Shown here piece after piece: positions 43,862-49,308 of a stretch of 64,000 bases of DNA (positions are counted from its first letter, which is position 1; each line of letters begins with the position of its first letter). A program made the translations under genes and the position numbers. Under the pieces are notes generated by a model. It was not told the origin of the DNA, did not search any database, and saw only the letters and a list, made by a program, of their open reading frames with translations. This DNA is from Alphaproteobacteria bacterium (GTDB taxonomy: Bacteria > Pseudomonadota > Alphaproteobacteria > GCA-2731375), in contig JADHTB010000001.1 of assembly GCA_016776605.1 (NCBI GenBank), positions 62,001 to 126,000 of the forward strand, read 5' to 3'.

Positions 43862-44356
43862 TTGACCGAACGCAGCCGGACCTACACCTGGGCCGATCCA
43901 AGCCAGACCGCCCAGGCGGGACGCTCGATGGCCGGCATCGATTATTTGCGCGCCATGATGGACGGCAGCCTGCCCCTGGCCGCCTTTCAAACCACCCTGG
44001 ATTATGTTCTGGTCGAGGTGACCGAAGGCCGGGTCGTGTTTGAAGGCAGGCCGGGAGAATATCTGGCCAACCCATTGGGCACGGTGCACGGCGGCTATTA
44101 TGCCGGCATGCTGGACTCCGCATTGGGCTGCGCCATCCACAGCCTGCTGCCGCTGGGCCATTCCTACACCACCCTGGAATTCAAGCTGAACATGGTCCGC
44201 GCCCTGCCCATGGACGGCAGTCCCATCCGCGCCATCGGCGAAGTCGTCCACCCCGGCCGCAAGATCGCCACCTCGGAGGCCCGTCTGGTGGATGCCAACG
44301 ACAAGCTGTACGCCCACGCCACCTGTTCCTGCCTGATATTTTCCGGCGACGGCTAA
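43862..44356 (+). CDS. PaaI-family thioesterase (hotdog fold)
   Basis: GEYLANPLGTVHGGYYAGMLDSALGCAIHSLLPLGHSYTTLEFKLNMVRAL; probable TTG start at 43862, or ATG 43928. Confidence 0.87.
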   Translation: MTERSRTYTWADPSQTAQAGRSMAGIDYLRAMMDGSLPLAAFQTTLDYVLVEVTEGRVVFEGRPGEYLANPLGTVHGGYYAGMLDSALGCAIHSLLPLGHSYTTLEFKLNMVRALPMDGSPIRAIGEVVHPGRKIATSEARLVDANDKLYAHATCSCLIFSGDG

Positions 44357-45708
44357 CCGCCGCTGTTTGATCCAGCGACGCGCAGGATAGCGGCCAAGGT
44401 TTTCGCCACGTCGGCGTCTTTCGTGGCGTGGGAGGAGAAGCTGATGCGCATGGCGGCGCGGCCGTGCCAGACAGTACCGCCGCACCAGGCGGTGCCGTCG
44501 GCCTGAACACCGGCAATGATCCGTTCGGTTACGCTGTCACCGCCGAACGAGACCATGACCTGATTTAATCTGACATCATTCAGGATCTCAAAACCGGCCG
44601 CCGCCAGACCTTCCGCTATCATGGTCGCGTGGCGGCAACAGGTTTCGATCAGTTCCGCCAGACCAACCCGGCCCAGGCTGGCCAGGGCGGCCCAGATTTC
44701 AACCGCGCGCATGCGGCGGCTGCATTCGGGCGTGTAGTCATAGGGCTCCCGTGTATCCGCATCCGGCAAATAGGCCGCGCTGATGGACATGGCCGCATGC
44801 AGGCTGCCAGGGTCGCGGACCAGGGTCACACCGCTGTCGTAAGGGACATTCAGCCATTTGTGGCCATCGACCGCCAGGGAATCCGCCAATTCATAACCTG
44901 CCGCCAGGGCCGCCCGTTCCGGCGCCGCCTTGGCCCAGATACCAAAGGCGCCATCGACATGTACCCAGGCACCGGCATCCTGGGCAGCAGGGATCAGTTC
45001 GACAGCGGGATCGAAGGCGCCGGAGTTCACATTGCCCGCCTGCAGGCACAGGATGGTCGGGCCCTTAATCAGCGGCAGGGCATCGGCCCGAATGGCACCC
45101 TGGCCGTCCACCGCCAGGCGTTGCACCCTGCCCTCTCCCAGGCCCAACATCCGCACCGCCTTCAACATGGCGGCATGGCCCTCGTCGCCAATCAGAACCG
45201 TTATCGGCGGGGCGCCGAACAGGCCATCGCGCTCCACATTCCAGCCGACTTGCGCCAGCACCGCGTGGCGGGCGGCGGCCAGGGCGGTAAAATTCGCCAT
45301 GGTGGCGCCGGTGACAAAGGCGCCGCCGGCAGCATCGGGAAAGCCGAAGATGTCCCGCAACCATTCCAGACAGTTCATTTCCAGGGCCGCGCCCAAGGGC
45401 GACGAAGTGGTGGAAAAGGCATTCTGATCCCAGGCACCGGCCAGCCAGTTGGCCGCCAGGGCCACGGGCAAACTGCCGCCCGTCACGAACCCAAAATAGC
45501 GCGGACCGGCACTGGCAATGGTCGCGGGACTGCCCAGGCGGTCCAATTTCGCCAGGATATCGTCCGCCGCTTCACCCTGCTGGGGAAACGGCGCGGCCAG
45601 TTCCGAGAGTGCCGCCAGTGCCTTTGTGCTGGGTGCTACGTCCCGGCGGTCCAGGCCGTCGAGATAGGCCAAGGCCCGCACGGCGGCATCTTGCAGAATG
45701 TCGTCCAT
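44353..45708 (-). CDS. Pyridoxal-dependent decarboxylase (aromatic-amino-acid decarboxylase-like)
   Basis: GGAFVTGATMANFTALAAARHAVL, WVHVDGAFGIWA, ADSLAVDGHKWLNVPYDSGV (PLP lysine). Confidence 0.9.
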   Translation of the reverse strand: MDDILQDAAVRALAYLDGLDRRDVAPSTKALAALSELAAPFPQQGEAADDILAKLDRLGSPATIASAGPRYFGFVTGGSLPVALAANWLAGAWDQNAFSTTSSPLGAALEMNCLEWLRDIFGFPDAAGGAFVTGATMANFTALAAARHAVLAQVGWNVERDGLFGAPPITVLIGDEGHAAMLKAVRMLGLGEGRVQRLAVDGQGAIRADALPLIKGPTILCLQAGNVNSGAFDPAVELIPAAQDAGAWVHVDGAFGIWAKAAPERAALAAGYELADSLAVDGHKWLNVPYDSGVTLVRDPGSLHAAMSISAAYLPDADTREPYDYTPECSRRMRAVEIWAALASLGRVGLAELIETCCRHATMIAEGLAAAGFEILNDVRLNQVMVSFGGDSVTERIIAGVQADGTAWCGGTVWHGRAAMRISFSSHATKDADVAKTLAAILRVAGSNSGG

Positions 45709-45895
45709 CTATTCCCCCGCAGAATTGTCGAAATATTTTGGCAGCGCCGGTTGGTATTACTATACAGCCCGCCACATCAGTGGCGGGTAAAGCGTGTTGA
45801 ATTGCAATTATAATTTGCCTTCGCGCTTCGTAATATTTAATGTTACATTCGAATCAGGCGCCGTTCAATTGGCGACGCTGGTGCGGGAGAGCGGC

Positions 45896-46252
45896 ATGGC
45901 CACCTTAGCATATGCCATCATGTGGTTCATGTTCGCGTGGCTGGCGGCGCTGGCGGCGATCGTGTTGTTGCGATTACTTGGCAACGGACGGCTCGGCGAA
46001 CTCTTGTACACGTCGAAGCCCGGCGGCGCGGCCGGCAATGACATAGACCCAGAGCGCGTGCAGTTGATCGTCGTCTCCCTCGGTGCCATCGGCTACTACT
46101 TCGTGCAAGGCATTCAGGCGGCGGCCACGGGCCCAATTTCCAGCTTGCCGGAGGCATCGGCGGCGTTGAACGCCGTGCTCGCCGGCAGCAACACCCTTTA
46201 TCTGAGCGGTAAGCTTCTGCGGCACTCCACCGCCGGAGCCACCGGGCGCTGA
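45896..46252 (+). CDS. Small membrane protein, cassette gene A
   Basis: 118 aa from ATG 45896 (GGGAG upstream); N-terminal TM, PERVQLIVVSLGAIGYYFVQGI second TM, LPEASAALNAVLAGSNTLYLSGKLL third hydrophobic segment. Confidence 0.72.
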   Translation: MATLAYAIMWFMFAWLAALAAIVLLRLLGNGRLGELLYTSKPGGAAGNDIDPERVQLIVVSLGAIGYYFVQGIQAAATGPISSLPEASAALNAVLAGSNTLYLSGKLLRHSTAGATGR

Positions 46253-46266
46253 CAGGAGAAAATATT

Positions 46267-46647
46267 ATGGATAGCTTAATCTCTCCCATCGATATCGCGA
46301 TGCTCGTAGCGCTCGTTATCTCTGTCATCATCCTCGGCTTCGCTTCCGTGATTTTGTACAAGATACTCAAGGGCGATATAAAAATGGAGGGCATCATTTC
46401 CGAGCCTGATGGGATTAAAGCCAGCCTGTCGCGCTTCCAGTACCTGATATTCACCTTCGTAATCGCCGGCTTGTATCTGGTCCTGTCATTGGAAAGCGGT
46501 ACCCTCATCGATATTCCGGAAAGCGTTCTGGTGCTTCTTGGGATCAGTGGTGGCAGTTATCTGATTTCCAAGCAGATCGGCGGCAAACCGGAGCCAAAAG
46601 GCGAACCCCCGGAAAGTACCGACAAACCCAAGAGCAAATCCAAATAG
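46267..46647 (+). CDS. Small membrane protein, cassette gene B (similar layout to gene A)
   Basis: 126 aa; SD AGGAG; TM1, LSRFQYLIFTFVIAGLYLVLSL, IPESVLVLLGISGGSYLISKQIG, charged C-terminal tail. Confidence 0.78.
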   Translation: MDSLISPIDIAMLVALVISVIILGFASVILYKILKGDIKMEGIISEPDGIKASLSRFQYLIFTFVIAGLYLVLSLESGTLIDIPESVLVLLGISGGSYLISKQIGGKPEPKGEPPESTDKPKSKSK

Positions 46648-46677
46648 GCGGCACGGCATCAATCGGGAGGCAGCCTC

Positions 46678-47631
46678 ATGGATAAGCAACGACGGATCCC
46701 AGCCCGGCGGGCAGGCTTGATCGGCCTCATTCTTGCCGGCTTCGCCACAGTGGCGTTGGTGGCGGAGGTATCGGCCGCCGCGATGTTGATGGCGGGGGCA
46801 TCGGTTGCCGTGGGAACCAACGATCCCAGCGAAAAATACTGCAAAACATTCAAAAGATACCGGCCCGTTAGCCGCGGCGATGCCGATCCTGACCAATTGA
46901 AACAGGTTTGCCGGCCGGGTTATGCCATCCTGCACAACGCCAAGACAAAAAATCCCGACTGGGTGATAGAGGTATTATTAGAAGAAGACCTGACGGGAGA
47001 GCCGGACCAAAGGGCAAAACGTAAGAATAACTTCAAGGCGGAGCCCGCGATTAAAGAAGACAAAGCGCAAAAATGGACCCGGCGCGCCGGTTTATGCCAT
47101 TACAAGTACAGCGGCTTCGCACGCGGCCACCAATCGCCCGCGGCCGACTACAAGTTCAACCAGAAACGCATGAATGACAGTTTCTATCTTTCCAATATGT
47201 CACCCCAGGTCGGTCCGGGTTTTAACAGCGGCATCTGGGCCCGCCTGGAAGAAAGGGTGCGGGACCTGGTGATTACCCGAAAGAAACTGGTGGTCTTCAC
47301 CGGGCCCATCTATGACGCTTCCGACAAGGATGACCCGGACTGGATCGCCCCCGAAAAAGCCTACATATGGGGTAATTGTCCCGTAGAGAAAAAAGCCCGC
47401 ACCGGCGTTGCCGTCCCCGATGGTTTTTACAAGATCATCTATGACCCCAGGCGCCGCCGCGTCCTGGCATTCGCCCTTCCCAACCGCCGGCTTTCCGGCC
47501 GCAAGATCGGCGAATTCCGCGCCACGGTGCGCGAGATCGAAGAACTGACCGGCATCAACTTTTTCCCCCGTTTTAAACGCCGCACCCAGAACATCCTGGA
47601 GCTAAACGAAGGCGAAATGTGGCGCTGGTGA
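46678..47631 (+). CDS. DNA/RNA non-specific endonuclease (NUC1/EndA-like) with N-terminal signal or TM anchor
   Basis: Hydrophobic N-terminus; SGFARGHQSPAADY (DRGH-type site), MNDSFYLSNMSPQVGPGFNSGIWARLEERVRDL, VFTGPIYD. Confidence 0.88.
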   Translation: MDKQRRIPARRAGLIGLILAGFATVALVAEVSAAAMLMAGASVAVGTNDPSEKYCKTFKRYRPVSRGDADPDQLKQVCRPGYAILHNAKTKNPDWVIEVLLEEDLTGEPDQRAKRKNNFKAEPAIKEDKAQKWTRRAGLCHYKYSGFARGHQSPAADYKFNQKRMNDSFYLSNMSPQVGPGFNSGIWARLEERVRDLVITRKKLVVFTGPIYDASDKDDPDWIAPEKAYIWGNCPVEKKARTGVAVPDGFYKIIYDPRRRRVLAFALPNRRLSGRKIGEFRATVREIEELTGINFFPRFKRRTQNILELNEGEMWRW

Positions 47632-47652
47632 TATCTCCGCCGATGCGTCCGT

Positions 47653-49308
47653 CTATTCCGCCGCGTCCGCCTGTAGGCCAGCCCGGCTCATGAAACCCTC
47701 GCGCAGATCCCGTTCGATATCGCCCGCGGCCCGCTCGCCCGGTTCGCCATAGCCCGCGCCGCCGCCCGTCCGCGCCACCAGGATATCGCCCTTTTGCAGG
47801 GGAAAACTGACCTTCGACGGCAGCTCGATCACCTGATCGCCGCGCAACACCTGGGTCGATGCGCAGACGCCATCGTCGCCGCCGAATAGCCCTTCGGGCG
47901 CCAGGCGAAAACGGTCTGAATAAGTCGCGAAGGTTACGTCATCCCCTAGAATATGATAGCGGCGTTGGAAGCCCAGGCCGCCGCGATGCCGGCCCGCTCC
48001 GCCCGAATCCGGCACCAGGGAGTAATCCTCCACCCGGAAATAGTCATATTCCATGTCCATGGCCTCAATAGGCACATTGGAACAGTTGGAGAGCGGGCTA
48101 TCGACGGCATCACAGCCGTCGCCGTGACTGGAGGCGCCGTAGCCGCCCCCCAAGATCTCCAGATAGATGGCGTAGCCGTCCTGCTTCAACTGGCTCAAGA
48201 CGATAATTTCCGTGGAATCGAAGCCCGCCGCGATAACCTTGTCCGGCGCCGATGGCGCCAAGGCCTTCATCACCGCATTGTAGGCCCGGTAGGCCGACAG
48301 CATGCGCGCCCGCACCGGCGCCGGCCGGCGGGGGTTCAACAGGCTGCCATAAGGCGCACGCACCTCTATGGGCCGTTTGCTGCCCTCGTTAAAGGGAATA
48401 TCGGGGCTGGTCAGCACCGATTTCACGCATGACAACCCCGCCGCCACGGTTGAGGCATAGGGGCAATTGACGTTAGATTTGACCTGATCGCAGGTGCCTT
48501 CGTAATCGACAATGACGCTGTCACCCTTAATCTCCACCCGGGCCCGCACGCGCAATGGCTGGTCCGTGATGCCGTCGTCGTCCAAAAAATCCTCACCCTC
48601 GTAGACCCCATCGGGAAATTCACGGATTGCGGCGCGCATGCGGCGTTCGGAATAATCCAGCAATTCGTTCATGGCCTCCTGCACCACGCCCTCGCCAAAT
48701 CGGGTGCACAAATCCTGCACCCGGCGGCCGCCGATGCCGTTGGCGGCGAACTGGGCATTAAAATCACCAATGGTCTGGTCCGGTACGCGAATATTGGCGC
48801 GGATCAGACGTTCCAACGGGCCGCCGTGCCAATCGTGGTTCATGTTGTATTTACTGGGGGGAAAGATGATGCCTTCCTGATGCACGTCGGAGGCGTCCGG
48901 GTTCAGCCCCGCCGCGCCGCCGCCCAGATCCAGGTGATGGGCCACGGTGGCGCCGAATCCCACCAGAATACCCTCGAAAAAAATCGGCGAGAACAAAAAG
49001 ACGTCCTGCAGATGCTGGCCGCCCTGGAAGGGGTCGTTGTTGATGTAGAAGTCACCCTCCACCAGGGTGTCGGTGGGGAATAGATCGGCACAGGGGCGAA
49101 ATGTCGCGCCAATGGGCCCCAACTGCATGGGGATCAATTCCGCCTGGGCCACCACGTTGCCATAGCGGTCCATCAGCGCGGCGGAGCAGTCATTGGCCTC
49201 CCGCACCACGGGAGAATAGGCGGAGCGGACCAGCTTGACCCCCATTTCCCGGGCCGCGGCGATCAGCCCCTGGCTGATTACGGCTTGATCAACAGCGTTC
49301 ACGGCCAT
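47653..49308 (-). CDS. Hydantoinase B/oxoprolinase family protein
   Basis: DCSAALMDRYGNVVAQAELIPMQLGPIGATF, NNDPFQGGQHLQDVFLFSPIF, GGGAGYGEPGERAAGDIERDLREGFMS. Confidence 0.93.
   Translation of the reverse strand: MAVNAVDQAVISQGLIAAAREMGVKLVRSAYSPVVREANDCSAALMDRYGNVVAQAELIPMQLGPIGATFRPCADLFPTDTLVEGDFYINNDPFQGGQHLQDVFLFSPIFFEGILVGFGATVAHHLDLGGGAAGLNPDASDVHQEGIIFPPSKYNMNHDWHGGPLERLIRANIRVPDQTIGDFNAQFAANGIGGRRVQDLCTRFGEGVVQEAMNELLDYSERRMRAAIREFPDGVYEGEDFLDDDGITDQPLRVRARVEIKGDSVIVDYEGTCDQVKSNVNCPYASTVAAGLSCVKSVLTSPDIPFNEGSKRPIEVRAPYGSLLNPRRPAPVRARMLSAYRAYNAVMKALAPSAPDKVIAAGFDSTEIIVLSQLKQDGYAIYLEILGGGYGASSHGDGCDAVDSPLSNCSNVPIEAMDMEYDYFRVEDYSLVPDSGGAGRHRGGLGFQRRYHILGDDVTFATYSDRFRLAPEGLFGGDDGVCASTQVLRGDQVIELPSKVSFPLQKGDILVARTGGGAGYGEPGERAAGDIERDLREGFMSRAGLQADAAE

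What the first reader, a model, noticed from the sequence alone, without database searches (positions are those of the whole stretch)
45896..47631. Three-gene cassette: two related small membrane proteins plus an exported NUC1/EndA-type nuclease
Three tightly spaced + strand genes (gaps 14 and 30 bp, each with a good Shine-Dalgarno) sit as an island between two oppositely oriented metabolic genes. Genes A and B share a layout: N-terminal TM, R-x-Q + second TM (PERVQLIVVSLGAIGYYF / LSRFQYLIFTFVIAGLYL), then LPE/IPE...YLSGKLL/YLISKQI. They may be diverged paralogues or two subunits of one complex. The third gene has an N-terminal hydrophobic export/anchor segment and a DNA/RNA non-specific endonuclease domain. 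Inference: an envelope nuclease module for DNA uptake, anti-phage defence or intercellular antagonism. I recognise no named system with this arrangement.
Basis: partly seen in the sequence, partly recalled or inferred. Interest (0 to 1): 0.78.

Follow-up and report, generated by a model that had tools for sequence, protein, structure and literature searches.

The report
Inserted membrane-pair plus nuclease cassette
A 1.94-kb piece of DNA, dropped neatly between two neighbouring metabolic genes, carries two related small membrane proteins of an unnamed family and an exported DNA/RNA-cutting enzyme; in other bacteria the same pair sits beside cell-wall-cutting enzymes instead, which suggests a transferable self-lysis or toxin-deployment kit that has not been described.

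Summary
A (45896-46252), B (46267-46647) and C (46678-47631) form a + strand operon with gaps of 14 and 30 bp. A and B are true paralogues (profile-profile E 3e-19) with the same three-helix, predicted N-out/C-in fold and match no Pfam, NCBIfam or PADLOC family and no solved structure. C is an exported EndoG/NucA-type nuclease with conserved catalytic residues.

The arrangement is not chance. A precedes B in 51 of 52 related loci, and the nuclease is in the operon in 29. In two congeners the flanking genes abut exactly where the window carries 1,944 extra bp, bounded by a 19-nt imperfect direct repeat.

A-B does not require the nuclease: 10 other loci have a peptidoglycan hydrolase instead (GH25, amidase, VanY, M23). 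All nucleases have an export leader, whereas six of seven wall hydrolases examined have none. A nuclease was recruited at least twice.

Best mechanism (inferred, about 0.4): A-B is a chromosomal holin-like inner-membrane pair deployed with an interchangeable destructive hydrolase. Main rival: a membrane-tethered nuclease barrier against incoming DNA. Holin homology, phage origin and spanins were tested and not found, so I do not file it as a holin or a T10SS.

The parts
45709..47652 (.). 1,944-bp insertion carrying leader + A + B + C; absent from the same junction in congeners G007 and G002
   Evidence: Hydantoinase B and PLP decarboxylase abut in G007 (...GCGGCGGAATAG|ATGGAC...) and G002; window GC 56% in the insert against 62-66% in the flanks
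45702..45720 (.). left copy of the 19-nt imperfect direct repeat bounding the insertion (carries the ancestral junction sequence)
   Evidence: the repeat finder family D3, 17/19 identical, spacing 1944; junction sequences
47646..47664 (.). right copy of the 19-nt imperfect direct repeat
   Evidence: the repeat finder D3
45768..45787 (.). perfect 8-bp inverted repeat CCCGCCACatcaGTGGCGGG in the insert leader (possible operator or hairpin; function unknown)
   Evidence: the DNA search, only exact copy in the window
45896..46252 (+). gene A, 118 aa, paralogue of B; three helices, predicted N-out/C-in
   Evidence: no Pfam, NCBIfam, PHROGs or PADLOC match
45899..45979 (+). A helix 1 (predicted TM)
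   Evidence: AF2 pLDDT 86 overall, hydropathy
46049..46126 (+). A helix 2 (ERVQ..., predicted TM)
46160..46240 (+). A helix 3 (predicted TM)
46267..46647 (+). gene B, 126 aa, core motif ASLSRFQ...LLGISGGSY..SK; three helices, predicted N-out/C-in
   Evidence: 52 homologous loci
46285..46371 (+). B helix 1 (predicted TM)
   Evidence: AF2 pLDDT 80 overall
46426..46497 (+). B helix 2 (SRFQ..., predicted TM)
46519..46578 (+). B helix 3 (LLGISGGSY, predicted TM)
46678..47631 (+). gene C, 317 aa, exported DNA/RNA non-specific endonuclease
   Evidence: PF01223 6.5e-43; PDB relatives EXOG/EndoG/Serratia nuclease; N-terminal hydrophobic leader
46900..47574 (+). C nuclease domain (residues 75-299) with catalytic H151, metal-site N183 and E191, all invariant across 19 members
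44353..45708 (-). flanking PLP-dependent decarboxylase (not part of the cassette)
   Evidence: PF00282 9e-46
47653..49308 (-). flanking hydantoinase B (not part of the cassette)
   Evidence: PF02538 1.7e-159

Best explanation
A-B-C is a compact, horizontally acquired operon. SHOWN by sequence: A and B are paralogous small membrane proteins that nearly always occur as a pair; C is an exported NS-type nuclease with conserved active-site residues; the three genes sit in one 1,944-bp insertion; other A-B pairs carry peptidoglycan hydrolases in place of the nuclease. INFERRED: A and B assemble into a hetero-oligomer in the inner membrane (three TM helices each, N-out/C-in) that is held inactive until triggered and then permeabilises or gates the membrane, as a holin does. 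The partner enzyme does the destructive step. Where it is a leaderless lysozyme, amidase or VanY peptidase, A-B would give it access to the wall. Where it is the Sec-exported nuclease, as here, A-B opening would bring the periplasmic nuclease and the chromosomal (or phage) DNA together, degrading the DNA while the cell dies or releases its contents. The outcome would be programmed self-lysis or suicide, or lysis-mediated release of the enzyme. Which of these benefits is selected for cannot be told from sequence.
For: A-B pairing in 51/52 loci. Paralogy and natural two-repeat fusions in one chain, which imply that A and B contact each other. Three-helix layout for both, with charge distribution giving N-out/C-in; fused forms carry a signal peptide and an extracytoplasmic N-terminal domain, agreeing with N-out. 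This is the topology of class I holins (PMC9636201). Partner swapping: GH25, Amidase_2 (three loci), VanY, M23 in place of the nuclease; GH25, amidases and VanY lack an N-terminal leader, whereas 19/19 nucleases have one. Nuclease recruited at least twice, from two separate nuclease clades and in opposite gene order. Further neighbours of the same lytic or toxic sort: Tle1-like lipase (L041, L017), caspase C14 (L067), RebB R-body genes (L062). Clean insertion into a two-gene junction. Correlated divergence A-B r=0.62, A-C 0.45, B-C 0.38, p=0.0005 each (shared ancestry contributes).
Against: No sequence or fold match to any holin: PHROG holin phrog_3427 only at E 0.066-0.096, Foldseek nothing significant in BFVD or PDB. 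No homologue in phage genomes or IMG/VR. About 13 of 52 A-B loci have no recognisable hydrolase next door. The nuclease is Sec-exported and does not need a holin to leave the cytoplasm. No spanin in the insert. A C-terminal PG_binding_1 on one B and a LysM on one A sit awkwardly with a cytoplasmic C-terminus. No expression, toxicity or interaction data exist.
Confidence: 0.4

Rival explanations
1. Envelope barrier: A-B anchors or switches on the periplasmic nuclease at the inner membrane so that DNA entering the cell (phage injection, conjugation, transformation) is cut; the peptidoglycan hydrolases elsewhere would act on invading envelope machinery or on sister cells.
For: Nuclease exported; patchy, horizontally acquired cassette typical of defence or antagonism genes; fused A-B form lies beside a cyclase and a prokaryotic E2 gene, a defence-like setting; A-C and B-C divergence correlated.
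Against: Does not explain leaderless wall hydrolases with the same A-B; no PADLOC match; no defence genes immediately around the window cassette.
Confidence: 0.27
2. Nutrient scavenging or eDNA remodelling: C digests extracellular nucleic acid in the periplasm or outside, and A-B is an accessory transporter or channel for the products or an assembly factor.
For: NS nucleases are often secreted scavengers (established knowledge); the cassette has lodged among catabolic genes in the window.
Against: Partner swapping to peptidoglycan hydrolases, the R-body, caspase and lipase neighbourhoods; flanking genes elsewhere are unrelated; A and B have no transporter family match.
Confidence: 0.13
3. Toxin plus immunity/export: C (or the wall hydrolase) is released to kill neighbours and A-B protects the producer's membrane or envelope, or ferries the toxin.
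For: Enzyme classes (nuclease, wall hydrolase, Tle1-like lipase) are those of interbacterial effectors.
Against: One A-B family would have to neutralise unrelated enzymes, which specific immunity proteins do not do; no delivery domain or secretion cluster in the window insert.
Confidence: 0.1
4. Chance neighbours without functional link.
For: Nuclease and A-B each occur without the other.
Against: 29/52 linkage against about one nuclease of this family per ten genomes; grouping of the linked nucleases plus a second independent linkage; single-unit insertion.
Confidence: 0.02

Closest known systems
Phage class I holin (lambda S105 type) with endolysin
   Same: Small three-TM protein with predicted N-out/C-in topology; in several relatives followed by a leaderless peptidoglycan hydrolase
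   Different: Two obligate paralogues; no sequence or fold similarity detected; not found in phage collections; in the window the partner is an exported nuclease
Type 10 secretion system (Serratia SmaLC, Yersinia YenLC; PMC10847048)
   Same: Chromosomal, non-prophage set of small membrane protein(s) and hydrolase in one cluster
   Different: No spanins; no endolysin in the window; paired membrane proteins show no detectable relation to known holins
NucA-peptidase conflict system ('System 3', eLife 2020, PMC7159879)
   Same: Endonuclease_NS enzyme in Alphaproteobacteria; lysozyme and papain-like wall peptidase as alternative effectors
   Different: System 3 has a trypsin-like peptidase as core component (sometimes with EAD1 or STAND components); none in the insert, and A/B are not described in the section read
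EndoG/EXOG/Serratia (Endonuclease_NS) nucleases
   Same: C belongs to this family: domain and catalytic residues
   Different: C belongs to a subgroup tied to A-B pairs; family membership says nothing about the A-B system
Caulobacter BapE apoptosis endonuclease
   Same: Alphaproteobacterial nuclease proposed to kill its own cell
   Different: No LexA box upstream of A in any locus; published bapE promoter not found near our cassettes; BapE protein itself could not be compared

Membership tests
DNA/RNA non-specific endonuclease (Endonuclease_NS) | PF01223 domain above gathering score | tested here: met
   147.4 bits against a cut-off of 23
DNA/RNA non-specific endonuclease (Endonuclease_NS) | catalytic His in RGH and downstream Asn/Glu metal-site residues | tested here: met
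   H151, N183, E191 invariant in 19 members
DNA/RNA non-specific endonuclease (Endonuclease_NS) | nuclease activity | not testable with these tools
   needs assay
Class I holin | three TM helices, N-out/C-in (PMC9636201) | tested here: inconclusive
   Three helices by AF2, charges favour N-out/C-in, but TM3 is only moderately hydrophobic and topology is unmeasured
Class I holin | sequence or fold match to a known holin family | tested here: not met
   PHROG holin only E 0.066-0.096; no significant Foldseek hit
Class I holin | lethal membrane permeabilisation that supports an endolysin | not testable with these tools
   needs expression
Type 10 secretion system | endolysin in the cluster | tested here: not met
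   window insert holds only A, B and the nuclease; met at other A-B loci
Type 10 secretion system | spanins | tested here: not met
   the three genes fill the insert; none is a small lipoprotein or i-spanin
NucA-peptidase conflict system (System 3) | NucA nuclease plus trypsin-like peptidase | tested here: not met
   nuclease present, no peptidase; flanks are a PLP decarboxylase and hydantoinase A/B
Known anti-phage systems (PADLOC-DB 2.0.0) | match of A, B or C to a defence model | tested here: not met
   no match up to E 10
A-B pair family proposed here | adjacent paralogous three-helix proteins with R-x-Q at the start of TM2 and an LPE/IPE...G-x-S...K third helix | tested here: met

The most novel reading that the evidence does not exclude
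A-B is a new bacterial membrane-effector family: a hetero-oligomeric, trigger-gated inner-membrane device, independent of phage holins, onto which evolution plugs interchangeable destructive enzymes (nuclease, lysozyme, amidase, D,D-peptidase, possibly lipase, caspase and R-bodies) to make transferable cell-death or toxin-release cassettes across many phyla, including one that pairs membrane opening with an exported nuclease.
Probability: 0.33. Interest if true: 0.85.

Novelty: new variant of a known kind. Interest (0 to 1): 0.6.

Why it matters
The A-B pair is found in Alphaproteobacteria, Gammaproteobacteria, Geobacter relatives, Nostocales, Calditrichota, Acidobacteria, Chloroflexi, SAR324 and others, yet the window's A and B match no curated Pfam or NCBIfam model, and no relative turned up in the phage, defence or structure libraries searched. 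Its conserved pairing and swappable hydrolases make a testable case for a non-phage lysis or membrane-effector module, and the window gives a minimal three-gene version with a clean empty site to compare. If it works as inferred, it would link exported nucleases, wall hydrolases and bacterial self-lysis through one shared membrane component.

Tried and rejected
Prophage or phage lysis gene: B has no match in 50,697 phage genomes at E 0.01-1 or in IMG/VR by profile (the one viral hit, L012, is a phage ORF sharing a short peptide). PHROG phrog_1322 ('membrane protein') matches 15 of 42 B members, at best 1e-5, too weak and too uninformative to build on. Plasmid carriage: cassette DNA not in PLSDB; only one fused A-B relative there. 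SOS-controlled suicide gene (BapE-like): no GTTCN7GTTC box in the 300 bp upstream of A in any locus; the original BapE paper is not held. Structural homology: none for B or A. Sigma-70 promoter: none found, against 1.5 expected by chance. Weak single-gene hits L006, L007: L007 is an MFS-transporter ORF and L006 scores only E 0.03 with the profile. Taking loci as 'of' centres for the genome search failed and was replaced by genome handles.

Full report
What was checked. C is a DNA/RNA non-specific endonuclease (PF01223, 6.5e-43). By sequence it is closest in the PDB to EXOG/EndoG, then to Serratia nuclease. H151, N183 and E191 are invariant across 19 relatives. A and B match nothing convincing in Pfam, NCBIfam, PADLOC or PHROGs, and the B profile matches no solved structure.

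A and B are paralogues. Profile-profile comparison of 42 B-type with 41 A-type sequences gives probability 99.2, E 2.9e-19 over 104 columns. AlphaFold2 models show the same three-helix layout (A: 2-28, 52-77, 89-115, pLDDT 86; B: 7-35, 54-77, 85-104, pLDDT 80). Charge averages put loop 1 and the C-terminus inside and loop 2 outside, so N-out/C-in. Natural fusions with two such repeats in one chain (L005, L008, L017, L126) exist, and several carry a signal peptide and an extracytoplasmic N-terminal domain, which agrees with N-out. The third helix is only moderately hydrophobic, so the topology remains an inference.

The arrangement is conserved. A scan of one genome per species (85,462) returned 52 B-type loci from Alphaproteobacteria, Gammaproteobacteria, Geobacter relatives, Nostocales, Calditrichota, Acidobacteria, Chloroflexi, SAR324 and others. 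A lies immediately upstream of B in 51; the one exception is a contig edge, and an A gene sits on the end of a second contig of the same genome. The nuclease is in the same operon in 29: downstream of B in 27, upstream of A in 2 (L053, L056). In a nuclease tree the downstream type, including the window, forms one group of 28 A-B-linked sequences plus one fragmentary unlinked row (support 86/93). L053/L056 lie in a different, well-supported part of the tree, so nucleases were recruited at least twice. Distances correlate between A and B (0.62), A and C (0.45) and B and C (0.38), p 0.0005 each, though shared descent contributes to that. The split A-B pair is sparse: strong hits in 2 of 290 alphaproteobacterial, 2 of 399 phylum-level, 2 of 195 Geobacter-class and 1 of 196 Nostocales-order genomes, the query genomes included. 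One of these, G632, is a further A-B-nuclease operon.

The enzyme is interchangeable. In 10 of the 23 nuclease-free loci the adjacent gene is a peptidoglycan hydrolase: GH25 (L062, L065, L066), Amidase_2 (L046, L063, L067), VanY with PG_binding_1 (L058, L059, L064) or M23 (L044, a genome of the window's own genus). GH25, amidases and VanY have no N-terminal hydrophobic leader; all 19 nucleases examined do, and M23 has a lipoprotein-type leader. Other neighbours are in keeping: a Tle1-like lipase overlaps the nuclease gene in L041 and follows the fused A-B in L017, a caspase-domain protein lies in L067, and RebB R-body genes follow A-B in L062. About 13 loci show no obvious enzyme partner.

The cassette arrived as a unit. 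In congeners G007 and G002 the hydantoinase B and decarboxylase genes that flank the cassette abut with no gap. The window has exactly 1,944 extra bp at that point (45709-47652), with GC 56% against 62-66% in the flanks, bounded by a 19-nt repeat matching at 17 positions that carries the ancestral junction sequence. No recombinase lies inside, so the route of insertion is unknown. Loss from the congeners is formally possible, but the duplicated junction and the low GC favour gain.

Mechanism. The constant core is the A-B membrane pair and the variable part is a destructive hydrolase. Three TM helices with N-out/C-in is the class I holin topology (PMC9636201), and leaderless wall hydrolases are what a holin serves. 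I therefore judge a holin-like, trigger-gated inner-membrane device the likeliest reading (0.4). In the window it would bring an already exported nuclease together with DNA, or release it on lysis. The main rival is a membrane-tethered nuclease barrier to incoming DNA (0.27), followed by scavenging (0.13) and toxin/immunity (0.1). Evidence against the holin reading: no sequence or fold similarity to holins, no phage homologues, no spanins, and PG-binding domains on the C-termini of one B and one A, which a cytoplasmic C-terminus does not easily explain.

Comparison with known systems. It is not filed as a holin (family match not met), not as a T10SS (holin/endolysin/spanin per PMC10847048; endolysin and spanin not met in the window) and not as the NucA-peptidase conflict system of PMC7159879 (no peptidase). 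C alone is an ordinary member of Endonuclease_NS. The A-B family and its modular pairing appear undescribed in the libraries and papers searched, which is not proof of absence from the literature.

Noticed in passing
L017:7679-12008 (Bradyrhizobium sp. 155 plasmid NZ_CP064705.1): Operon of guanylate cyclase, prokaryotic E2 protein, fused two-repeat A/B membrane protein and Tle1-like lipase: looks like a cyclic-nucleotide/E2 defence-type system with the A-B fold as possible membrane effector.
   Followed up: partly
L062:6475-11131 (SAR324 MAG): GH25-LysM lysozyme, A (with C-terminal LysM), B, then several RebB-type R-body genes: R-body release may use an A-B lysis pair.
   Followed up: partly
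L067:5617-11122 (Geomonas paludis): A-B-amidase flanked by alpha/beta hydrolase genes and a caspase C14 protein.
   Followed up: partly
L041:5354-6853: Tle1-like phospholipase gene overlaps the end of the nuclease gene in an A-B-nuclease operon.
   Followed up: partly
window:45768-45787: Perfect inverted repeat CCCGCCACatcaGTGGCGGG in the insert leader, about 108 bp upstream of the A start codon; unique in the window.
   Followed up: partly
L058:7998-8717 and L062:7471-7992: B with a C-terminal PG_binding_1 domain and A with a C-terminal LysM domain; hard to reconcile with a cytoplasmic C-terminus.
   Followed up: no
L126:5477-6739, L008:985-2184, L005:1153-2007: Larger two-repeat membrane proteins sharing the A-B fold, some with extracytoplasmic N-terminal domains; wider, unnamed family with unrelated neighbours.
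   Followed up: partly
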